Shown here: positions 2,776 to 29,565 of the stretch, in pieces
How positions within the stretch are numbered: the stretch's first letter is position 1
Layout: each line of letters starts with the position of its first letter
NCBI GenBank assembly: GCA_036924085.1
Contig: JAVGWX010000011.1
Location: 20,755,955 to 20,819,954, forward strand
Source: Ariolimax columbianus
Lineage: Eukaryota; Mollusca; Gastropoda; Stylommatophora; Arionidae
Direction of reading: 5' to 3'
Length of the DNA stretch: 64,000 nucleotides
Program-made: the position numbers and the translations under genes
The notes under the pieces: model-generated
The model's input: the letters and a program-made list of their open reading frames with translations, nothing else
Told to the model about the DNA's origin: nothing
Databases searched by the model: none

Positions 2776-3150
2776 ATATGTCATACCTGGTTGTATACAG
2801 ATTCTTTAGAGGTGACTTAATACAGGTTTATAAGATAATCAAAGGAACGGAAAAATTAAACTACAAAAAGTTTCTCAAAATACAACCACCTACAAGAACA
2901 AGAGGGCATAGCTACAAATTAATTAAAGAAAGGTCCAGATTATATATTAGGAAATATTTGTTTAGTCAGAGAGTGGTGAATAGGTGGAATGCATTGCCAC
3001 AGGATGTAGTGGTGACAAGGGTAATAATGCATTTAAAAATAGATTGGATGCGCATAGCTTTTAGAGCAAGGAAATGTAAATGAAACTGGTTGTATACATA
3101 CTCTGTAGAGTCTTCTAAACCAGTATAAAGACGTTAAGTTAAGTTACCAT
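2776..3150 (+). pseudogene. CR1-like LINE, truncated 3' end
   Basis: The frame contains RGDLIQVYKIIKGTEKLNY, TRGHSYKL and FSQRVVNRWNALPQDVV. These are the conserved C-terminal blocks of CR1-clade reverse transcriptases. After the stop come 'aaactggttgtatac' and 'tcttctaaaccagtataaag', then a GTTAAGTTAA tail. The 5' end is truncated, and the RT palm is absent. At least eight other fragments in the window share this 3' end. Confidence 0.85.
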
Positions 3151-3169
3151 GTCCGTTTCACCAAACCCA

Positions 3170-3515
3170 CATTTGTCTGAGCGATACTTATTTTGCTTCT
3201 AAATTATGTGTTTCTTTATCGTATTTCAGGCTGTATCTTATTAAACATTAATTATCCCCCGTAGCAGATTAAGGCTAGCATAGCACAATCGACTGGAGGA
3301 CCCCGGTTCATTTTCACCAGCACGCTCGAGGTGTATGGAAAGCCACTGCAACCTGCCACTCTTAGCCCCTTTCAATGCGCATAAAAAAGTAATTTTACTC
3401 ATTGTGGGCATTCAACAACAACAACAATAACAACAACAATAACGCGATTGTTTAAGTAAGAATTAAGGAGAACCTGAAGACACGAATGGTGAGATTCCCT
3501 TCAGAATTTCATATA
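3170..3515 (+). repeat. Duplicated segment, copy 2, interrupted by a CAA-tailed SINE
   Basis: The outer parts (3170-3260 and 3440-3515) match 2561-2775. Between them, about 3261-3440, sits a SINE-like insert with 'cgactggaggaccccggttca', 'cactcttagcccctttcaat', 'cattgtgggcattcaac' and an (AAC)n tail. The same SINE end occurs inverted at 46675-46790 and 56700-56740. Confidence 0.55.
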
Positions 3516-10109: not shown

Positions 10110-11530
10110 TATGTGCTCGAGTCTACCACAAGCTGTGTAAACAGATATGGCACAGTGCAGAGTGGCCAGAAGCATGGAAGAAATCAATTTATATTCCCCT
10201 CCCCAAAAAAGGCAACCTGAACTGTGCACGAACTACCGAACTATCGCACTGATCAGCCATGCTAGCAAGATACTCCTGCGAATCCTATTAAGAAGGATAG
10301 AGAAAAGGTTTGAATCTGAAATTCACGTAGTCCAGGCAGGTTTTAGGAAAGACAGAGGGACCCGGGACCACATATTCAATTTAAGGAATATCTATGAAAA
10401 ATGTAGAGAGTTTAATGTAGACCTGTACACATGTTTCATTGATTACACTAAGGCCTTCGACACGGTAAAACATCAAAATCTGTGGAGAATCATGAAGGAA
10501 ATGGGGTTTCCTTTGCATATAGTCCATCTCATTGAAACATTATACCAAGATCAACAAGCCGCTGTCCGAGTATCTGGGCAAACATCAGATTGGTTTGCAG
10601 TACAAAAGGGAGTCCGACAGGGATGTATACTCTCACCTTATCTGTACAACATATATGCGGAATGTATAATGAGAAATGTGCGAGAAGATGAGAACATTGA
10701 AAGTTTCGACCCATTTACGATTGGGGGGTACGAGATTCCAGAGTTACGATATGCAGATGACACAGTGATACTATCAAGAAGTGCGGAAGGGCTAGAGCAG
10801 CTACTTTCAGCCGTTAATGGACATAGTAAAGATCAAAATCTGTTCATAAACATAAACAAAACAAAGATAATGACCACCGATAAAACACAATGTCAGCATA
10901 CATTTACAGTGGGTGGTGAGGAAATAGATCAGGTTACACTTTTTGAATATCTGGGCTCCAGATTAACAAAAATGGTGACTGCTCGAAAGAAATCAGAAGA
11001 AGACTAGCTATGGCAATGGAGAGACTGAACAGCCTGAAGAAATTATGGCAGGGCACCAACAAAACGATAAAAGTAAAAGTCTTGAGAGCCTGTGTTTTTC
11101 CTGTGGCAGCTTATGGCTGTGAAGCATGGACGATTACCAAAACTTCTAGACAAAGAATCGAATCCTTCGAGTCAAAATGTTACAGAAAGATCCTCAGAAT
11201 ACCCGGGACAGAGAAAAGAACAAATGTAGACATTCGGCAAGAGTTGAGCATAGAGGAGAACTGGTTTATCAATTCCATTTTGGCTAGAAAATGCAAATAC
11301 TTTGGTCACATCAAGAGACACAACGGTTTTGAGAGAACGGTGATGGAAGGTATGGTGCCAGGCAAAAGAGGAAGGAGTAGACCAAGAAGACGATGGCACC
11401 AAGATATCCAGGAGTGCCTGAGTATGACAGTGGCGGAAGCTGGAGTTTTAGCAAGGGAACGAGTTTCTTTCAGACAGACTGTGATGGGAGCGACGTTCTA
11501 CAAAGGACATGCTACATGATGATGATATAT
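10110..11530 (+). pseudogene. RTE/BovB-like LINE reverse transcriptase, 5'-truncated, two frameshifts
   Basis: The copy enters at the start of the RT domain (IWHSAEWPEAWKKSIYIPLP). It continues in another frame from about 10225 (YRTIALISHASKILLRIL, QAGFRKDRGTRDHIF, FIDYTKAFDTV, GVRQGCILSPYL) and reaches the catalytic LRYADDTVIL. A one-base loss in an A run near 10970 breaks the frame before the thumb/C-terminal part (LAMAMERLNSLKKLW, AAYGCEAWTITK, KYFGHIKRH, RPRRRWHQDIQE), which ends at 11519. The endonuclease is missing. The order and wording are those of RTE/BovB-like elements. The 3' end is ATGATGATATATAT. Apart from two indels it is well preserved, so the insertion is fairly young. A relative lies at 51958-52430 on the minus strand. 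Confidence 0.9.
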
Positions 11531-13412: not shown

Positions 13413-13424
13413 GGTGGCTGGTCT
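13413..13424. repeat. Target-site duplication, left
   Basis: GGTGGCTGGTCT here is repeated exactly at 20812-20823. Joining the two flanks gives an uninterrupted minisatellite unit, so this is a genuine duplication made on insertion. Up to two bases could belong to the GAA tail. Confidence 0.9.
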
Positions 13425-13446
13425 TCTTCTTCTTCTGCGTACACAG
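13425..13446 (-). repeat. LINE 3'UTR with (GAA)n tail
   Basis: On the minus strand, after the stop codon, the sequence is GTGTACGCAGAAGAAGAAGA. A trinucleotide GAA tail at the 3' end recurs in the other Nimb-like copies (22265, 28064, 47533) and in the short retroposon family, and marks the priming end. Confidence 0.85.
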
Positions 13447-16400
13447 TCAGACAGTAACCATTATTTTTTCGAAAAAAGCAGCGGTCATCCTGAGACTCTC
13501 GCCACTACCATACAGCTTGTCTTGCAGTTCCACTGGCAATGGCCACATCTGCTCTCTCTGATCCTCGTATGTCGGGCAGTTCTGCAGCAGATGTTCAGTG
13601 GTCATTTTACCAGTACCGCACGGGCATTCGTCGGTACACCCTATCTTCAGTTTGTTGAATAGGTGGTACCTCAGTCTGTTGTGGCCAGTGCGAAGTCTGA
13701 AGACAACGACCTGCTCTCTTCGGTTCAACTGGTAATAGGCATCGTTTTTGGTGTAACCAGTATGTTCGGTTTCCCATTTGGACATGTATCTGGCTTTGAT
13801 AAGCCGTTTTGACTCTTCGTACGTCATACTGGTATCTGTTTGTGGTAGTCTTGCACCTTCTTTTGCCAGTCTATCGGCCTCCTCGTTTCCTTGGATGTTG
13901 CAGTGTGACGGAACCCACTGTATCACCACCCTTTTTGGTGCGGACTGCTGGCACAGTTTGCAGAGTGCTGCTCTTAAGTCATTAAGCTCAGTGTTCTTCT
14001 GGCTTTTTAGCGCTGTGACTACTTCGAGAGCATCTGTCAGCAAGACTATATGGCTCTCATTTTCACTGTGTGTTGCCATTTCTTCCACTGCCGCCCTCAG
14101 TGCCTCTGCCTCTGCTCTGAAATTGCTTGTGTACTTACCAGTAGCGAATGACAGTGTTATATTTGTGCCATTTGGTAGGTTCAGGAATGCTCCTGCCCCT
14201 CCGTTCTGTGTAGTGTTTGTTACAGAACCGTCGGTGTATGCATGGGTCCAGTCCATGCTTGGGTAGCTTTTCGTTATGAAGCTTAGGGTAGTGTCTCTCC
14301 TTTCTTTCTCACTCTGGCAGTTTTTGTTTGCAATACCTGGTATATTTTCTACCACCTCTGGAAATATATCCTGCCTCCAAGTAGGTTTTCGTACAGTAGT
14401 GATGGGTTTTGGTGTTGTTAGTGCGTTTGTGGGATCTTCGTGCATCTTTGCTTTGGCTATTTCTGCAAAGTTTCTCCGCTTCAGTTTCCCATTTCCCAGA
14501 TTGTTTAGTCTCTGGTACATTGGATGGTCCGTCAGTCTTCGGAGTTTCTCTGACTGCAGCTGGGCTCTGCAGTCTCTTCTATCGGTCATGGATTGCAGTC
14601 TTGTAATCTTTTCAAGTTCTACAATTGGCGTTGACTTCATGCCACCTGTTATGATTCTCATGGCTTGGTTTTGAAGTTTGTTAACTTTATCGAAGTTCGC
14701 CTTCGCTGCTGTTGTCCATGCCGCAATGCCATACTCGAGAACTGGTCTCACTCTTCCAGTGTACAGTTTCTTTAGTATGCTTTCGTCTGCTCCCCAGCTT
14801 GTGCCAGCAAGTTTCCTCATGATCGCCATTCTTTCTCTGGCTTTCATTCGGTTTCTCTCAATCTGACTTTTCCATGTCATGCGCCGATCAAATGTGACTC
14901 CCAGATAGGTTGGGTTGTCGTTTGGCTGCAGGATTTTGCCGTTTAGGCTTAATTTGGTACTTTGGGGTTTTAATGAGAGCGAGAATATTGTGCACGTGGT
15001 TTTCTCCTCGTTTATTTTTACCAGCCATGAGTTCGCCCACTCTTCCAGCGATGTTAGGGCCGTTTGCATCCGGTTTCTTGCTATGGTGAGATTCTTTTCA
15101 GAGGTCCACATAGCCAGATCGTCTGCAAACATTGAGCTATGGACTCTTCTTGGTATATTCTCTGTAATATCGTTTATATATACCAGAAAGAGTGTGGGTG
15201 ACAGTACTCCCCCTTGGGGTACTCCCTGCTCGAGTGTCACCTTTTTGCTCATCTGCCCTTGTACTTGGACTCTGGCCGTTCTTTGTTTGAGGTAGTGGTT
15301 GATCCACTTGTACATCTTCCCACAGACATCACTTCTTCTCAGCTTGACTCTAAGTCCGTCCTTCCAGACTTTGTCAAATGCCTTTTCCAGATCCACCCAG
15401 ACAGCTACTGTGTGCTTCTGTGCCTGGTAGGCATCTTCTATCTCCTGGGCTATGAGGATGACCTGGTCCTCAGTGGATCTGTGCTGTCTAAAGCCGGCTT
15501 GCTGTGGGATTAGAATTCGTTTTTCTTCCAGATGCCACATCAGTCTGGTGTTTATCATCCGTTCCATCAGCTTGCCGACACAGCTCAGTAGGCTTATGGG
15601 CCTGTATCCATTCGGATCTGTTTTATCTTTTCCTGTTTTTGGTACTGGTACCAGTATTGCATCCTTCCATGCCTGGGGTACAATACCCCTTTTCCAGCTT
15701 TGGTTCAGGACTGATAGTAGTTTTTTCTTCGCTGTTTGGCCCAGCCCCATCAGCATTTCGTTTGTTATCCCGTCTTTTCCGGGAGATTTCCTTTTCTTTA
15801 GTGTTCTCATAGCCTCTTCCATTTCACGCATGGTTAGTTTGGCCATCATGTGCTCTTCAGGAGCCGTATTTATGTTTTCGTGTCGCTTTAGCTCTTCGCT
15901 AATGTCTGTATGCTTATCTGCAGGGACCTCGATGTGGTTTGCTCTGGCATAGTGATCGACAAAGGCGTTTGCTGCTTTCTTACCTGTGATCAAGTTCTCG
16001 CCCTGCTTGATAGTAATTTGTTTATTTGACGGGGTTTCGTCGTTCATGGCTCTGACTAGCTTCCATAGCTTGTTCCCTTCTTTGTCCAGGTTTAAACTTT
16101 CCGTTTTGTTTTTCCAACTTTCTCTTGCTGTTTGCTTGAGAGCGTGTTTGTACTTCGCCGTGGTGGCTTTGAGGGCGATGTTCGCCTCCATGGATTTTTC
16201 ACGTTCTGCCACGTTCCTAGCATTTGTTACTGCATCTTCCACTTTCTGTAACTCATCATTCCAGTAGGGCTTATAGTTTTTCCTAGCTCCTCTTGGGATG
16301 GTTTCAGTGGCGGCTTGCATTATTGCCTTGCTTAGGCTCTCTACCATGGGCTTCATTTTGGTGTTTCGTGTGTTGATGGTTTCACACAGCCCATCTGTCA

Positions 16401-17355
16401 GGATTGCAAATCTGTCCCAGTCGGCTCGTTTGTAATTCCAACGTGGGAGCGGTTTTGTTTCCTGTGGGCCTACTTCCATGTCAATGGTTAGCCTGATCGG
16501 CCTGTGGTCGCTACCTGCCAGTTGGTTTAGCACCTGGCGGTCTATTTTATAGTGTATGTCCTGTGTGGAGAAGGCCAAATCCGGAGTCGAGGTGGTATGC
16601 CATGTTCTTGAATAGAAGCTAGGGCTATCCTCCGGCCTATTGATTAGGGAGAGATTTGCATCTATCTCCCAATCTTCCACTTCGTCACCTCTGCTGTCTG
16701 TGTCAGAGTAGCCCCATCTCTCCGAGTGGCTGTTGAAATCTCCAACTACTATGCAGTTGGAGTCTCTGACCTCCATGCTCGAGAGCGATAGGTCTCTGTT
16801 TGGTGGTCCGTACAGATTGAAAATGCGGAGCTTCGTCTCTTGAGCCATTATGTCAACTCCTACAATTTCTGCTTGTCCGGTGTGATTGACAGGTACCGCG
16901 CTACTCGGTATGCTGTTTCTGGTCAGTATCAGGACCCCTCCTTTGTGGCCTTCTCTATCTAGACGGAAGGTCTGGTATCCTCTGATTGAGAATTTATGGA
17001 TACTGTTGAGGTGCGTTTCTTGGATACATGCCACGTCAATCTTACCTTCATGCAGGTGGTGTGTAAGGGAAAGTTTTTTGTTAATGACTCCCTCCGCATT
17101 CCACTGTAATATTCTGAGGGTCTTGAAGTTTTGGCCAATAGACGTTACCCCATAGCCATGTGCCTTGACTCCACGACACATGGGTGGGTGACCACCAGTA
17201 GTCAAGGGTGGGCCCCTTTGAGGCGTGAGGCCCGGCGCTATCGCTGCCTGGCGGGTCTCCTCAGGATGAGCGCCATACGTTTTTCGAATAGGTTGTGCTG
17301 CCATCATACTGTGATTTACGTTGCACTGTTTTGTTAGGCTTGCGGCCCCGTGCAT
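13447..17355 (-). CDS. LINE ORF2-type polyprotein: endonuclease, reverse transcriptase, RNase H
   Basis: A 1302-codon uninterrupted frame. APE-type endonuclease, about residues 79-300: E113 in CIQETHL, LYGPP, D206/N208 in VVGDFNSH, and SDHRPI (D283, H284). Reverse transcriptase, about 520-830: D655 in VDLEKAFD, GVPQGGVLSP, FADD at 743-746 and YLGVTFD. RNase H, about 1038-1170: D1042 in TDGS, acidic residue(s) at 1082/1084, D1108 in LLTDALE and D1161 in NEEADRLAKE; all four catalytic acids are present. A C-terminal zinc-knuckle-like C-x-C-x8-H-x4-C follows at 1244-1260. This architecture is that of I-superfamily LINEs (Nimb/Ingi-like). It nicks DNA and copies its own RNA at the nick. No ORF1 was found upstream. 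I used the first Met of the open frame; the true start may lie further in. It looks potentially active. Confidence 0.93.
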   Translation of the reverse strand: MHGAASLTKQCNVNHSMMAAQPIRKTYGAHPEETRQAAIAPGLTPQRGPPLTTGGHPPMCRGVKAHGYGVTSIGQNFKTLRILQWNAEGVINKKLSLTHHLHEGKIDVACIQETHLNSIHKFSIRGYQTFRLDREGHKGGVLILTRNSIPSSAVPVNHTGQAEIVGVDIMAQETKLRIFNLYGPPNRDLSLSSMEVRDSNCIVVGDFNSHSERWGYSDTDSRGDEVEDWEIDANLSLINRPEDSPSFYSRTWHTTSTPDLAFSTQDIHYKIDRQVLNQLAGSDHRPIRLTIDMEVGPQETKPLPRWNYKRADWDRFAILTDGLCETINTRNTKMKPMVESLSKAIMQAATETIPRGARKNYKPYWNDELQKVEDAVTNARNVAEREKSMEANIALKATTAKYKHALKQTARESWKNKTESLNLDKEGNKLWKLVRAMNDETPSNKQITIKQGENLITGKKAANAFVDHYARANHIEVPADKHTDISEELKRHENINTAPEEHMMAKLTMREMEEAMRTLKKRKSPGKDGITNEMLMGLGQTAKKKLLSVLNQSWKRGIVPQAWKDAILVPVPKTGKDKTDPNGYRPISLLSCVGKLMERMINTRLMWHLEEKRILIPQQAGFRQHRSTEDQVILIAQEIEDAYQAQKHTVAVWVDLEKAFDKVWKDGLRVKLRRSDVCGKMYKWINHYLKQRTARVQVQGQMSKKVTLEQGVPQGGVLSPTLFLVYINDITENIPRRVHSSMFADDLAMWTSEKNLTIARNRMQTALTSLEEWANSWLVKINEEKTTCTIFSLSLKPQSTKLSLNGKILQPNDNPTYLGVTFDRRMTWKSQIERNRMKARERMAIMRKLAGTSWGADESILKKLYTGRVRPVLEYGIAAWTTAAKANFDKVNKLQNQAMRIITGGMKSTPIVELEKITRLQSMTDRRDCRAQLQSEKLRRLTDHPMYQRLNNLGNGKLKRRNFAEIAKAKMHEDPTNALTTPKPITTVRKPTWRQDIFPEVVENIPGIANKNCQSEKERRDTTLSFITKSYPSMDWTHAYTDGSVTNTTQNGGAGAFLNLPNGTNITLSFATGKYTSNFRAEAEALRAAVEEMATHSENESHIVLLTDALEVVTALKSQKNTELNDLRAALCKLCQQSAPKRVVIQWVPSHCNIQGNEEADRLAKEGARLPQTDTSMTYEESKRLIKARYMSKWETEHTGYTKNDAYYQLNRREQVVVFRLRTGHNRLRYHLFNKLKIGCTDECPCGTGKMTTEHLLQNCPTYEDQREQMWPLPVELQDKLYGSGESLRMTAAFFEKIMVTV

Positions 17356-18300
17356 CCGATTTCAACAGGCGTTTCTGTAGGGATGCCCTCCTTAGCCTTT
17401 GGCTGTCCCCAGCCTATCTGCAAGGCAGCAGTTGTTTACGATCAGAGTTTTCTCTCCTATGGAAGTTGTCTTACCAGACTATCGAGTCTTCACTACTCGT
17501 GTCTATAGGGTGCAATGATGATGATATATGAGATGGACTGGTTTACCCGGAAGAGAGGCAGTCCAGTGTGTCTGTATCCCAGGATCGTCACGTCCTGCCA
17601 GAAACGTAGCATTTGCATTTGAGTGGGGTATCTCTTTTTCCCTTTATTTTCTTGGCTTCTATGCAGGGATGGTACGCCTAGCATTCCCCGCCACCTGGGG
17701 TGTTGACACAGTGGGGCAGGTGTGCAATGCCCGCTGGTCTGCATCTCTTCTGCGTCCAGTATGATAGTTATATGGCTGATAACGTACAGAGGTAGATATC
17801 GTAGCCGGAGTGCATTCAGCCAGAGGACAAGCCTGGTAATGTCACCGAGATGTTGTTCGCCTGGTGTGCGGACAACTCTCATGGTCGGTGGTTGAGTCTT
17901 GACAGTTCACAGTGAGGTGGCTGCTCTACTGTTTTCGACACCCCGACCAGGTACTAAGTCTTTGGTTGGTGTTTTTTCGCACCCCATCGCCGTATAGGGT
18001 GAGTATCAAGCAGTTGTCCGCCCGCTTTGACTTGCGGGCGGCAAGGACCTCTTACTGTGGCTCTACCTGATAGGGCTGGGGCGCAAGCCCCAGGTCCCAA
18101 GCATGTAGGAGCCCCCCATTGCAGTGGTGCTGAGATTTTGGGCGGGATTGCGGCTTACAAGGGTTCGGTCGCAATCCCCCACATGGTAGCCTCGCGCCCT
18201 TGGCTTATCAGCCTGGTACGTGAACCAAAGTGTCTGCGGCTCCTCTCGATTTGAGCTGGTTTTCCGTAGCAACGCCCAGTCATTTGTAGGGTAAAACTGA
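17356..18300 (-). other. Proximal 5' leader of the LINE
   Basis: About 0.95 kb between the ORF start and the hairpin units has no convincing gag-like ORF1. The frame at 17493-17882 lacks a zinc knuckle or RRM. The sequence is moderately GC-rich, with several self-complementary runs (for example 'gggcgcaagcccc' near 18078-18092). It is presumably the untranslated leader, perhaps with internal ribosome entry, but that is inference. Confidence 0.6.
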
Positions 18301-18930
18301 CCTGTCTTCAGATGATCTATTTCCAGCACCCGTTCACTATTTGGTCAGACGAACTTATTGAGGGCTTTTGTTTGTCAATGACCAGGTATTTGAAATCTGC
18401 GGTTTCTGCAGAGTTAAAACACGATTTTCGTAGCGTTCTTTCATTTGAGTGTTTGAGAGCTGACTTGTCATCCGTGAGTCTAATACCAGCGTACGTTCAT
18501 TATTAGACCCAAACGGCAGTGCTCTCGATTTGTCAGTTGTTCTACAGTATAGGCGTGTTCAGTCAAATTTAGCCGCAGATTCCACACCTGGTGGTGCCCT
18601 TCCGTCAATTCCCTGAGCGAGACAATCAAGTTTCTTAGGGGGTAGCCCCAAAATTGTCGAGGGTCTAATTCCAGCACATGTTCTCTATTAGACCCCGCGA
18701 AGGTGTACTTTTTGATAGTCATTCCGCAGTGTTGGCGTGGTAAGTTAACTTAGGTCTCAGGCTCCACTCCTGATAGTGCTCTTCCGTCAATTCCTTTATC
18801 ACACACTGGATGCAGACAGAACCGAGCCACAGGGGCATAACCCCAGAATTCTGGGGGTCTAAGTCCAGCACCAGTTCCATATTAGACCCCAGAAGAGTGG
18901 TCTCGGCATGTCACTCATTTCAGTGTTGGC
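18301..18930 (-). repeat. Tandem hairpin plus 18S-derived units (3-4 copies, ~160-195 bp)
   Basis: Units recur with hairpins at about 18313-18350 (weak), 18475-18510, 18661-18695 and 18854-18890. Each of the last three pairs GGGTCTAA-type and TTAGACCC-type arms around 'tccagca'. To the right of each hairpin lies a decayed copy of one 18S segment containing the universal CCGTCAATTCC site (18602, 18784; the intact 18S has it at 18979). Similarity to 18S falls with distance from the real 18S. The junction word between 18S and the hairpin block (minus CACG-GCCAACACTG) is reused. This is the 5' leader of the LINE and may be promoter-like or ribozyme-like. Confidence 0.75.
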
Positions 18931-18953
18931 CGTGTTGAGTCAAATTAAGCCGC

Positions 18954-19002
<49 letters not shown>

Positions 19003-20168
19003 TTTGCAACCATACTTCCCCCGGAACCCAAACACTTTGGTTTCCCGGAAGCTGCCCGCAGAGTCATCGAAGCAACTCCTGCGGATCGCTAGTCGGCATC
19101 GTTTATGGTCAGAACTACGACGGTATCTGATCGTCTTCGCGCCTCTGACTTTCGTTCTTGATTAATGAAAACATTCTTGACAAATGCTTTCGCAGTAGCT
19201 CGTCTTGCGGCGATCCAAGAATTTCACCTCTAACGCCGCAATACGAATGCCCCCGTTTGTCCCTGTTAATCATTACCTCCAGTTCCGAAAACCAACAAAA
19301 TAGAACCGAGGTCCTATTCCATTATTCCATGCACCATTATTCAGGCAGCCGAGGCCTGCTTTGAACACTCTAATTTTTTCAAAGTAAACGCGCCGGCCAC
19401 CCAGGACGCTCAGCGAAGAGCACCCGTGGGAGAGAGCCGGCAGACGGTAGGGCAGGAGACAACGGGCAGTGAACCGGCGCGAGCCGGACCGCCCGCCTGC
19501 GCCTGAGATCCAACTACGAGCTTTTTAACTGCAACAACTTTAATATACGCTATTGGAGCTGGAATTACCGCGGCTGCTGGCACCAGACTTGCCCTCCAAT
19601 AGATCCTCGTTAAAGGGTTTAAAGTGTACTCATTCCAATTACGGGGCCTCGAAAGAGTCCCGTATTGTTATTTTTCGTCACTACCTCCCCGTGCCGGGAG
19701 TGGGTAAGTTGCGCGCCTGCTGCCTTCCTTGGATGTGGTAGCCGTTTCTCATGCTCCCTCTCCGGAATCGAACCCTGATTCCCCGTTACCCGTTACAAAC
19801 ATGGTAGGCATGTCACGTACCATCGACATTTGATAGGGCAGACATTTGAAAGATGCGTCGCCGGCACATGAGGCCATGCGATCAGCACAAAGTTATCCAG
19901 AGTCACCAGTGGGGACGCCGCAACCCCGCGAGGGGAAACGACGATTGGTTTTGAACTAATAAAAGCGCTCTTTCCGCGAGGGTCGGAGCTTGGTAAGCAT
20001 GTATTAGCTCTAGAATTGCCACAGTTATCCAAGTAGGATCGTGTCATCTAAGGAACCTCGACTGATTTAATGAGCCATTCGCGGTTTCACCGTGAGACAG
20101 TGTGAACTTAGACATGCATGGCTTAATCTTTGAGACAAGCATATGACTACTGGCAGGATCAACCAGAT
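18931..20168 (-). rRNA. 18S rRNA, 5' two thirds (nt 1 to ~1238), retro-inserted copy
   Basis: The minus strand starts at ATCTGGTTGATCCTGCCAGT. It contains the universal 18S landmarks in order: GTCTCAAAGATTAAGCC, CAGCAGCCGCGGTAATTCC, AGAGGTGAAATTCTTGG and AATTGACGGAAGGGCACCAC. It stops just after TTTGACTCAACACG, where a real 18S would continue GGGAAACTC. I see no indels in the conserved cores, so the copy is recent. The variable regions fit a mollusc, probably a gastropod. It is not a functional rRNA gene: the 3' third, 5.8S and 28S are missing and the flank is minisatellite. Confidence 0.95.
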
Positions 20169-20811
20169 ATCTGTCGGAGACGTACGTACTGCGCACACCG
20201 GTCGGCGGAGGAAGGGTGTGTAAAAAGCCTCACTGGGACGGCCGCAGGGACCGACTGACGGGACGGACGAACGGTTGTTCCACCCGTCCCTCACTCCGTC
20301 GACCTAGGACCGCCTGACAGGGGCCTCCCACACGCACCAGACGACCGACCGACCGGGCTCGCTCGAGGAGGGATGGCAGCGCTCTGTGCAGAACGGATCC
20401 CAACGACCTCGGCGACGAATTTCACTGGGACTAGAGACACCATTTGGCCTGCCCTTCTCCCCTTCTCCGTAGGGAGAGAGAGAACGCAGGGCCTCGAGGC
20501 AACGATTCCTGCTTTCCATTTGCCGGTCACAAGCTCTTTGCGAGAGTCGGACCACCAGCGAGACGTACTGTCGAGCTCTGCTATAAGCCTTAGAGAAATC
20601 ACCACGGACGGACCACGTTTCCTGATACGGACCAGACTAGGGCACCTCGGTGGAGGAGCCACTACCACAAACCGCACCCAATTCGCACTACGGGGAAAGG
20701 CAGGCGAGCGTTTTCCGCAAGCCCGCGCTATCGCTCCGCCTGGCGGGACTGAGATCGCTTTACCAACACTGGTTGAAATTGAGTCGCTGCGGCGAGACAA
20801 CTACCCCAGAT
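20169..20811 (-). other. rDNA 5' external transcribed spacer, possibly from the Pol I start
   Basis: GC-rich sequence immediately upstream of the 18S start and inside the target-site duplications. It is expected to be the pre-rRNA 5'ETS. Its outer end (minus ATCTGGGGTAGTTG) abuts the duplication exactly. If the inserted RNA was full length, this marks the Pol I transcription start, giving an ETS of about 643 nt. This is inference from position; the frames at 20291-20838 are not genes. Confidence 0.75.
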
Positions 20812-20823
20812 GGTGGCTGGTCT
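20812..20823. repeat. Target-site duplication, right
   Basis: GGTGGCTGGTCT, identical to 13413-13424. The minisatellite resumes directly after it. Confidence 0.9.
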
Positions 20824-21180: not shown

Positions 21181-21774
21181 GAATAAAATTTAGAGAAAGT
21201 GTTGACACAATAGAGTGTCTCTGTATATAAAAGAAATGAGCAAACTAATGCGTGAAAAAGTCTCGCAAGTTTCAAGCAGCCACTGGTCTCAAGACGAGGT
21301 GAGATCAGCCTCTAGTATTATCGGAGATGGATGACAAACTCAGATATCCAGTGTACATGCTGTGCACATAATAGACCCTTTTGCAGTTGAAAATCTAAAA
21401 GAGCAGGTTCTTAGCTGATGTCCAGGCAAAAATTCTAAAGGTAACGCAATTCCCACACAGTAGTGGGCACCATGAAGGCCAAAAGGAAGTAGCTCCTCCA
21501 TTATGCAAAGACACAACATGCCAATCACCGGTTTTTCTGCACACTCATTGTCAAGTATTATTAAAAAAACTGTTGTAGGACTTTTATTCTCATTGTTTGG
21601 GTAGTCGAGAGGTTTTAAAGGCTAAGGACTACAGGCTGCTTCACCTCTGCTGTCATTGTGATGAGTCATGTGCTGGCTTTGTTTGTTTATGACACCCCTA
21701 ACAGAAAAACAACATATGCCATACCGGGAACTCGACCTACTGCCTTAGGAGGCAGGCATTGAAACCATTCATAA
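21181..21774. repeat. Unclassified repeat piece, otherwise empty
   Basis: The segment 21325-21445 ('gatgacaaactcagatatccagtg', 'ctgtgcacataatag', 'gttgaaaatct') is repeated at 23027-23130. No coding sequence was seen in the remainder. Confidence 0.45.
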
Positions 21775-22265
21775 AAGCATAGTCCAGAAGATACCTGCTG
21801 ACTGCAACATCCCAGGCAATGAGGTGGCAAACAGACTCGCCAGAGAGGGAGGAACACTGCAGCAGAGTGATACCGCAACCATATTCGATGAGACAAAATT
21901 AGCCATCAAGGCTACATACAGAGCAAAATGGAAAAAAGACCACCCTGGCCACATAGAAAATGATGCCTACCACCAACTTTCCATGCCAGATCAGGAGATC
22001 ATTCTCCAGATACGCATAGGACACAATAGACTGAGATGCCATCTCTACAATAAGTTCAAGATTGGCACTACAGACCTTTGTGTCTGCGGCACAGCCCCCA
22101 TGATTGCAGTCCTGCCCATTGTATACCAACAAAAGAAGTAGCATTTGGCAACAACCAGTGTCCTTCCAGGGAAAGCTGAACGGAAGTGCATGGAGCCTCA
22201 AGTCGACTGCTGCCTTCGTTAAAGTCATTGAAGTCAAGGTCTGAAGACTAATGAGGAAGAAGAAG
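21775..22265 (+). pseudogene. Nimb-like LINE 3' end, 5'-truncated, one frameshift
   Basis: The frame starts in the RNase H end (NIPGNEVANRLAREGG) and runs through DETKLAIKATYRAKWKKDH, HNRLRCHLYNKFKIG and CVCGTAPM. It shifts frame near 22105 and continues to the stop near 22242. The tail is GAGGAAGAAGAAGAAACC. It is closely parallel to residues 1155-1302 of the intact LINE at 13447-17355, but not identical, so it belongs to a related subfamily. Confidence 0.85.
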
Positions 22266-28061: not shown

Positions 28062-28455
28062 TCTTCTTTGTTCATCCTCAGATCAAAGTCCTGGTTTCTC
28101 TTACATCCTCAGATCAAGGTCCCGGTTTCTCTTACAAAGGACACCGTTGTTTATAAGGCTATTTTATCTCCATACAGCTTTTGTCTCATATCTGTATCAC
28201 GAGGCCAGTATTGTTCTCTCTCTTCCTGCGTGAGCATGCAGCTTTGTAGGATGTGTTCCACAAACATGGTACGCTCCCTACTTGGACACCTATCACCTTT
28301 CACAATCCTCATTTTGTTGTAAAGATGGCCCTTGAGTCTGGTATGCCCAGTTCTCAGTCTGAAGATGATGACTTGCTTTTCTCTAATTAAATTATTGTCT
28401 TCTTTTCAGAAGAAGTAGTGTTGATCCGCCAATTTTCTCTTGGAGTTGGCTTTAA
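28062..28455 (-). pseudogene. Nimb-like LINE 3' end, intronic
   Basis: On the minus strand: REKQVIIFRLRTGHTRLKGH, LYNKMRIVKG, a zinc-knuckle-like remnant and QKLYGDK, then a GAAGAAG tail at 28064. A 30-bp direct repeat ('catcctcagatcaa' twice) lies near the tail. It is truncated and frameshifted, and lies in the intron between the CREB3L-like exons. Confidence 0.8.
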
Positions 28456-28479
28456 TTATGGTCTTGACCTCATTAAAAA

Positions 28480-28560
28480 TACATTTCAATCAATCGCTCA
28501 ATCAATCAAACCTTTTCAGCTCCCTGTGGAGCATAGGTCTTCAACAAATAAATGCCAAAT
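28480..28560 (-). repeat. LINE 3' tail with (TTGA)n
   Basis: The minus strand shows 'gaagacctatgctccacagg', then 'gagctgaaaaggtttgattg' and (ATTGA)n. Confidence 0.6.
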
Positions 28561-28890
28561 CATCAAATGTTGACGTGTCCATATCGAGTGAAGTTTTCAC
28601 AGTTTAAAATTTCTACATGATGGGGTATAAAGCCATATGTCCAACCCTCCATAGTTATTTTTTACAACCTGCCTGACAGGTTACAGTGTTACTATTCTTT
28701 ACTCCCATTTCAGACCCTGCTAATACTCAGTCAAGCAAACATTTAAATTGATACATTTTCTTCTTCTCTGTATCTTCATGTGTCAAATTCTATGTATGTA
28801 CAGAACACAATTATCATATTACTAATTTTTTCCACCACATTCTCATCGAAAGAAAACATGCTATGCTGTTCTGATAGCTTCACTAGTTCT
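28561..28890. other. Intron sequence, no feature
   Basis: Nothing was recognised. Confidence 0.45.
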
Positions 28891-28894
28891 TGTC

Positions 28895-29450
28895 AAGTTA
28901 TTTGACACAATGACTACATCAGTTCAACAGATATCCTACAAGAACATTGAACTGAGGGCAGCCTTGGCAAACATGTCTTACGGGTTCCAGAAAGCAGTGA
29001 TACAGTGGATACCATCACAGAGTAACATTTTTAAAAATCAGGAGGACGACAGTCTTCCAAAGAGGGAGTGAAAGTGATACAGGACGAATACCTGGTCAAC
29101 TATGAAGAAGCAAAAGCCATAATAAAAGGGCAATATAAGATAAAGTGGGAGGAAGAACACCTCAAACACTATGCAGATGATGGATACTACTAACTGTCCA
29201 GAAAAGAACAAGTTATCAAACTACATCTCCAAACTGGCCACATCAGAATGAGGCACCATCTGTAACCAAATTCAAGATAGGTACCACCAGCCTATGTTAC
29301 TGGCGCCTGGCAAGCATAACAGCAGAACATGTACTTCAAGACTGCACCCAGCACACAAATCTGAAGAGAACGATGTGGTCTACACCGACTCCCCACTAGA
29401 AGAAATTGTATGGCAGTATTGAGACCCTGAAAAAGACAGGGTAATTTATT
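28895..29450 (+). pseudogene. Nimb-like LINE, RNase H to C-terminus, degraded
   Basis: Frames read NIELRAALANMSYGFQKAVI and QWIPSQSN (RNase H end), then YLVNYEEAKAIIKGQYKIKW, then LSRKEQVIKLHLQTGH, a zinc-knuckle-like end and CTQHTNLK. Several stops and frameshifts are present. It is parallel to residues about 1115-1290 of the intact LINE and lies in the CREB3L-like intron. Confidence 0.8.
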
Positions 29451-29565
29451 GAAAAATCTGGTCCCACTCTAAATGAGCAATTATCGCAGAAGAATTCAAC
29501 TAATATCAAGTGTGAAATTGAGAAAAACAATGTATGGTCTAACCAAATTTGGAACTCTTTTGGAA

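What the first reader, a model, noticed from the sequence alone, without database searches (positions are those of the whole stretch)
13413..20823. A single 7.4-kb retro-insertion joins an rRNA promoter-side transcript (5'ETS + 18S) to an intact LINE
Seen: identical 12-bp duplications (GGTGGCTGGTCT) border a continuous minus-strand order of ETS, 18S nt 1-1238, leader, 1302-codon LINE ORF and (GAA)n tail, all inside one 39-bp minisatellite. Known: LINEs integrate by target-primed reverse transcription and leave such duplications. Inferred: the integrated RNA began at or near a Pol I start, ran through 18S and into a LINE. That means either the LINE resided in an 18S gene and borrowed Pol I transcription, or the RT switched template onto pre-rRNA. 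Known rDNA-targeted LINEs use different clades (R1, R2, R4 and the 18S-targeted R7, R8); an RNase H-bearing I-group element in 18S would be new to my knowledge.
Basis: partly seen in the sequence, partly recalled or inferred. Interest (0 to 1): 0.93.

Follow-up and report, generated by a model that had tools for sequence, protein, structure and literature searches.

The report
A LINE that rides ribosomal RNA transcripts
In what looks like a sea-snail genome, a LINE retrotransposon appears to sit inside 18S ribosomal RNA genes, to be copied out from the ribosomal RNA start site, and to have scattered near-identical copies, each headed by ribosomal RNA sequence, across the chromosomes.

Summary
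Confirmed, and larger than reported. The 7.4-kb insertion (12-bp duplications; ETS, 18S nt 1-1239, leader, 1302-codon APE-RT-RNase H ORF, (GAA)n tail) is one retrotransposition event. The leader is itself old rRNA: three ~190-bp units, each an 18S piece (nt 1177-1239) plus a 28S piece, then a diverged 28S 3' domain. It is not a one-off: 40 places were scored (window included), all ~100% identical in the leader, and 26 of 30 fetched run through 18S into the ETS. Of 39 other copies with 5' flanks fetched, 29 start at the same nucleotide or the next; none was seen to reach further. Other copies join the same pre-rRNA start to the LINE at other 18S points: of 18 copies of one class, 16 end at nt 1394-1397, seven of them joined to the element's first base. 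A predicted 3' junction was then found once: LINE tail, 18S nt 1386-1396 repeated, then the rest of 18S and ITS1. Best reading: an RNase H-bearing LINE living in 18S genes, transcribed from the rRNA start without 5' release, with progeny dispersed genome-wide. Resident copies in rDNA were not seen directly, and the 3' junction for the window's own site (1239) could not be searched.

The parts
20812..20823 (.). target-site duplication at the element's 5' end (AGACCAGCCACC in element sense)
   Evidence: exact 12-mer at both ends
20170..20811 (-). 5' external transcribed spacer (ETS), 642 nt; its first base is element position 1 (el1), the shared start of full-length copies
   Evidence: position directly upstream of 18S; common start in 29 of 39 other copies with 5' flanks fetched
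18931..20169 (-). 18S rRNA nt 1-1239, gene-like
   Evidence: RF01960 950 bits; 99.84% to the 18S in L059; consensus of window-type copies shows no substitution against the consensus of 8 copies with other junctions
18799..18993 (-). unit A: 18S nt 1177-1239 (shared with the row above), linker CCAACACTG.., 28S piece
18613..18798 (-). unit B: same order, 18S part with 10 differences of 63
18430..18612 (-). unit C: same order, 18S part with 7 differences of 63
17874..18341 (-). diverged 28S 3' domain (D), starting at the same 28S nucleotide as the 28S piece of the units
   Evidence: RF02543 64.5 bits, model 3007-3399; extends upstream to the unit motif
17356..17873 (-). rest of leader, no rRNA similarity found
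   Evidence: z -1.0 and 0.3
13447..17355 (-). LINE ORF, 1302 aa: APE-type endonuclease, reverse transcriptase, RNase H
13425..13446 (-). short 3' UTR ending in (GAA)n
13413..13424 (.). target-site duplication at the element's 3' end

Best explanation
A non-LTR retrotransposon lineage with an APE endonuclease and RNase H (probably Ingi-like, I superfamily) inserts into 18S rRNA genes. It has no visible 5' release step, so the rRNA promoter makes one RNA that starts at the pre-rRNA start, runs through ETS and 18S up to the insertion point, and on through the LINE to its (GAA)n tail. The LINE protein then reverse transcribes that whole RNA at new places, in 18S and all over the genome. The window holds such a full-length copy, from an element at 18S nt 1239, put into a minisatellite. 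Shown: dispersed copies, their common start, 18S junctions, duplications, the 1396 3' junction in a read-through copy, intact ORFs. Inferred: Pol I, the resident masters, cis preference. The 18S and 28S pieces of the leader are relics of older captures; the 18S piece may serve as a homology arm when the 5' junction forms (inferred).
For: (1) 40 of 40 scored places, of 2454 first-look candidates, are ~100% identical over the 1067-nt leader; of 30 fetched (one is the window's own copy) 26 run through 18S into the ETS. (2) Start at el1 or el2: 15 of 20 window-type copies, 9 of 9 copies with other junctions, 5 of 10 of the 1396 class. (3) Target duplications of 9-16 bp in 4 of 6 further copies. 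(4) 18S in window-type copies equals the consensus of 8 copies with other junctions, no substitution. (5) In 25 copies, columns with a variant shared by two or more: ETS 9 of 271, 18S 0 of 1239, LINE 12 of 2557: the pattern of rDNA, where spacers vary and 18S does not. (6) ETS and LINE variants reassort: all four combinations in 63 of 104 ETS-LINE pairs, 8 of 78 LINE-LINE, 6 of 28 ETS-ETS. (7) 16 of 18 copies of one class end at 18S 1394-1397; LINE side el1 in seven, el1867 in three, others elsewhere. (8) Those three share both ends yet are only 78-88% alike in the LINE and 56/56 in 18S. (9) In 30 of 30 joins the LINE begins upstream of the ORF. (10) The pattern tail-to-18S, chosen beforehand, gave one match and none in the reversed control: tail, then AATAGTTCGCC = 18S 1386-1396, then 18S to 1849 and ITS1.
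Against: No resident copy in an rDNA array was seen, and no genuine rDNA unit was found; the ITS1 query did not complete. The 1396 3' junction was found once, in a dispersed copy with its own 15-bp outer duplication, so it shows a read-through RNA, not the gene. The 3' junction at 1239, the window's own site, is untested. Junctions elsewhere in 18S, in 5.8S and 28S are less tidy than one target site. The window copy went to a minisatellite and all copies listed lie outside rDNA as far as seen, so specificity is loose. Copies 27 of 39 in (2) do not all share unrelated flanks: L054 and L076 look alike by eye, unexplained. Two of six copies gave no duplication (one had none, one fetch missed the end).
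Confidence: 0.75

Rival explanations
1. Template switching: the LINE's reverse transcriptase, on reaching the end of LINE RNA, jumps onto pre-rRNA and copies it to its start; homology of the 18S pieces in the leader guides the jump.
For: Joins to pre-rRNA are many and varied. L064 has an 8-nt overlap at its join. LINE-1/28S rRNA chimeras are described, 18 loci (PMC13174262, passages).
Against: Needs one exact 18S end (1396) in 16 of 18 copies, with the LINE side at its very first base in seven; needs the same double join three times in elements 78-88% alike; does not predict the 3' junction with 18S 1386-1396 repeated; LINE-side ends would be expected inside the ORF too, yet 30 of 30 lie before it.
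Confidence: 0.12
2. The family owns its promoter: an ancestral copy captured ETS plus 18S, the ETS carries an internal start-site promoter, and dispersed copies make new copies without rDNA.
For: High-copy, near-identical, full-length family with a fixed 5' end; three further copies have the ORF open.
Against: 18S has no shared variants and matches the host-like consensus while the LINE does not stay so uniform; ETS and LINE variants reassort; copies with other 18S junctions have the same start. Homologous template switching in 18S could mimic part of this.
Confidence: 0.1
3. Assembly artefact or chance join of rDNA and LINE.
For: rDNA is often misassembled (general knowledge).
Against: Target duplications at outer ends in the window and 4 of 6 further copies; same structure on many contigs.
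Confidence: 0.02

Closest known systems
R1 of Drosophila (R1 clade, 28S)
   Same: Copies outside rDNA of the melanogaster type carry upstream 28S sequence, 7-28 bp, ending at a fixed position; the upstream rRNA on the transcript is proposed to anneal to the target (PMC2718515, passages). Here three copies begin with 15 nt of 18S (el1867).
   Different: Here the rRNA head is the whole ETS plus 18S nt 1-1239, the target is 18S, and the protein has RNase H.
R7 (R7Ag) and R8, LINEs of 18S genes
   Same: 18S target (R8 in hydra: PMC5035012, passages; R7Ag: PMC7265360, passages and a reference title).
   Different: R8 belongs to the R2 superclade and R7Ag to the R1 clade in those passages; this element has an APE endonuclease plus RNase H. 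Their exact 18S sites were not found in what I read.
R2 families with 28S-derived 3' UTR
   Same: rRNA-derived sequence became part of an untranslated region of an rDNA LINE (PMC5035012, passages).
   Different: There 28S in the 3' UTR; here 18S and 28S pieces, repeated, in the 5' leader.
LINE-1/28S rRNA chimeras of mammals
   Same: rRNA fused 5' of a LINE in sense (PMC13174262, passages).
   Different: 18 loci, fragments of 50-482 nt there; here a high-copy family with one start and full-length rRNA head.
Ingi elements of gastropods
   Same: I superfamily; 273 sequences listed for Batillaria, whose protein P0087 is 49% identical (PMC11203168, passages).
   Different: No rRNA link is mentioned in the passages seen; clade placement not tested by a tree.

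Membership tests
rDNA-resident LINE (R element) | inserted in an rRNA gene, with duplication or deletion at a defined site | tested here: inconclusive
   5' junctions at 18S 1396 in 16 of 18 copies of the class and one 3' junction with 18S 1386-1396 repeated, but in retrocopies, not in an rDNA array
rDNA-resident LINE (R element) | co-transcription with rRNA | tested here: inconclusive
   shared start at the head of ETS-18S in 29 of 39 flanks; no RNA data
I superfamily / Ingi clade | APE endonuclease, RT and RNase H in one ORF | tested here: met
   Pfam PF03372/PF14529, PF00078, PF00075
I superfamily / Ingi clade | RT phylogeny with Ingi references | not tested
   no named reference set at hand
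R2 superclade (R8) | restriction-like endonuclease, no APE domain (recalled) | tested here: not met
   APE-type endonuclease at residues 83-288
R1 clade (R7) | RT phylogeny | not tested
   no reference set; R1-clade elements mostly lack RNase H (recalled)
LINEs with HDV-like ribozyme at the 5' end | ribozyme that frees the RNA from a co-transcript | tested here: inconclusive
   no Rfam match; home-made descriptor found none, but it had no positive control

The most novel reading that the evidence does not exclude
A high-copy LINE lineage that lives at preferred sites of the 18S gene (nt 1239 and 1396), uses the rRNA start and never trims the rRNA off, so that its transposition RNA is a true pre-rRNA/LINE hybrid; its leader, made of repeated 18S and 28S relics, keeps target-homologous arms that guide the 5' join and perhaps helps translation of an uncapped RNA; its progeny spread functional-looking 18S and ETS sequence over all chromosomes.
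Probability: 0.5. Interest if true: 0.92.

Novelty: new variant of a known kind. Interest (0 to 1): 0.87.

Why it matters
It would place an RNase H-bearing LINE in 18S genes, show a LINE whose replication RNA keeps the whole 5' part of pre-rRNA, and give a case where rRNA-gene residence feeds genome-wide spread. It also seeds a genome with near-perfect 18S and ETS copies, which matters for rDNA assembly and 18S barcoding. I found no such case in nine full-text searches; the library lacks most subscription journals.

Tried and rejected
Chance similarity of leader units: rejected; 28S scores of A, B, C, D and 18S scores of A, B, C were reached by 0 of 1871 background windows each, while a fourth 18S piece at D was not there (1774 of 1871 windows score as well). 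HDV-like ribozyme: none found, weak test. Similarity between the minisatellite target and 18S near 1239: script mis-joined the 18S, result not used. IMG/VR scans for the junction, the LINE, 18S and the unit hairpin: nothing; a 28S pattern gave one contig, L008. In one search L067 could not be placed and does not count. In one search I dropped four truncated loci, the window's duplicate L010, and, for totals, L038, an outlier seen first. In one search unit A served as the 18S reference, so its zero differences are by construction; the support is. The p-value 1e-9 treats inherited variants as independent; by variable columns it is 0.0019.

The list of 40 scored places is capped, so copy numbers are lower bounds. 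The 18 copies of the 1396 class were picked from 28 short matches in a capped list of 42; that 28S/18S query came from L007, and short matches end near there partly because L007 diverges, so class ends were read against the host-like 18S of L059. Flanks were compared by eye.

Full report
What is there. On the minus strand, between two copies of a 12-bp duplication inside a 39-bp minisatellite whose register is restored when the flanks are joined, lie 642 nt of ETS, 18S nt 1-1239, a 1575-nt leader, a 1302-codon ORF with APE endonuclease, RT and RNase H, and a (GAA)n tail. The best named protein matches are from Littorina saxatilis and Batillaria attramentaria, so the host is probably a caenogastropod (inference).

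The leader is rRNA too. Three units of about 190 bp (self-match E 4e-42; profile) each hold an 18S piece, nt 1177-1239, a linker and a 28S piece (z 6.2, 7.5 and 5.5 against L008). A fourth 28S piece starts at the same 28S nucleotide and runs on as a diverged 28S 3' domain (z 23-24; RF02543). Background windows never reach these scores, 0 of 1871. Against unit A, unit B differs at 10 and unit C at 7 of 63 18S positions with no shared change, while the rest of the units is far more diverged. The 28S-like stretch folds more stably than 99 of 100 shuffles (z -2.87).

It is a family. The window lies in a 2.29-Gb assembly of 401 contigs. The leader matched 40 scored places out of 2454 candidates, window included, all ~100% identical. 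Of 30 fetched, 26 run through 18S into the ETS at 98.9-100% identity and 4 are truncated in 18S. Of 20 5' flanks, 14 start at el1, one at el2, five are truncated. Target duplications were found in 4 of 6. Three further ORFs are open over 1304 codons.

Other joins. Twelve loci found by 18S downstream of the junction all carry LINE sequence after 18S, joined at different points: 18S nt 1590, 1645, 1663-1670, 1739, 1799, or beyond 18S, one through 5.8S, one with a 28S stretch. Nine of these whose ETS was fetched all start at el1 or el2, with an ETS 89-97% like the window's. Of 18 further copies, 16 end at 18S 1394-1397 (L091 and L083 do not); seven are joined to el1, three to el1867, six elsewhere. 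Of ten of this class, five start at el1 and five showed no element match in the 401 nt fetched. In 30 of 30 joins the LINE begins before the ORF.

Why residence in 18S. Seven copies read 18S to nt 1396 and then the element from its first base, as if a full-length element had been put into 18S there. Residence predicts a 3' junction with the duplication ending at 1396. One pattern search gave one match: LINE tail, AATAGTTCGCC (18S 1386-1396), 18S to 1849, ITS1. That locus is a dispersed copy with a 15-bp outer duplication, a LINE part at each end: a copy of a read-through RNA of an rDNA unit with a LINE in 18S and another LINE part in ITS1. Three copies with the same two ends are only 78-88% alike in the LINE but identical over 56 nt of 18S, as expected of elements long resident in genes that stay uniform. 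In the young copies the ETS varies most, the LINE less, 18S has no shared variant, and ETS and LINE variants are reshuffled across 18S.

Limits. No resident copy or genuine rDNA array was seen; most genome requests did not complete. Site 1239 lacks its 3' junction. Pol I is inferred from the start position. Function of the leader modules is speculation: homology arms as proposed for R1 (PMC2718515), or translation aids.

Noticed in passing
window 20720-20750 and 17229-17258: A ~28-nt stretch near the start of the ETS resembles one in the LINE ORF near its start (local score above 200 of 200 shuffles, but close to the best shuffle).
   Followed up: partly
window 21773-22244, 28136-29456, 10142-11007: Other degraded LINE parts similar to the ORF by tblastn; no rRNA match there.
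   Followed up: no
L069 about 1120-1215: A LINE tail joined directly to 18S near nt 884, then 18S to 1645 and another LINE; another possible 3' junction or a nested insertion.
   Followed up: partly
L054 and L076 5' flanks: Two copies on different contigs have similar sequence just upstream of el1, perhaps insertion into the same repeat (by eye).
   Followed up: no
L060, L065, L067, L096, L100, L101: The LINE side starts at el1865-1869 (15 nt of 18S before the leader) with several different 18S ends: a recurrent second 5' end.
   Followed up: partly
L001-L007; plasmid record NZ_CP050525.1; L008: Eukaryotic rDNA sits in bacterial genome bins, 18S-like sequence in a record filed as an Acinetobacter plasmid (80.5% over 99% of the query), and a 28S fragment at the edge of an IMG/VR contig.
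   Followed up: no
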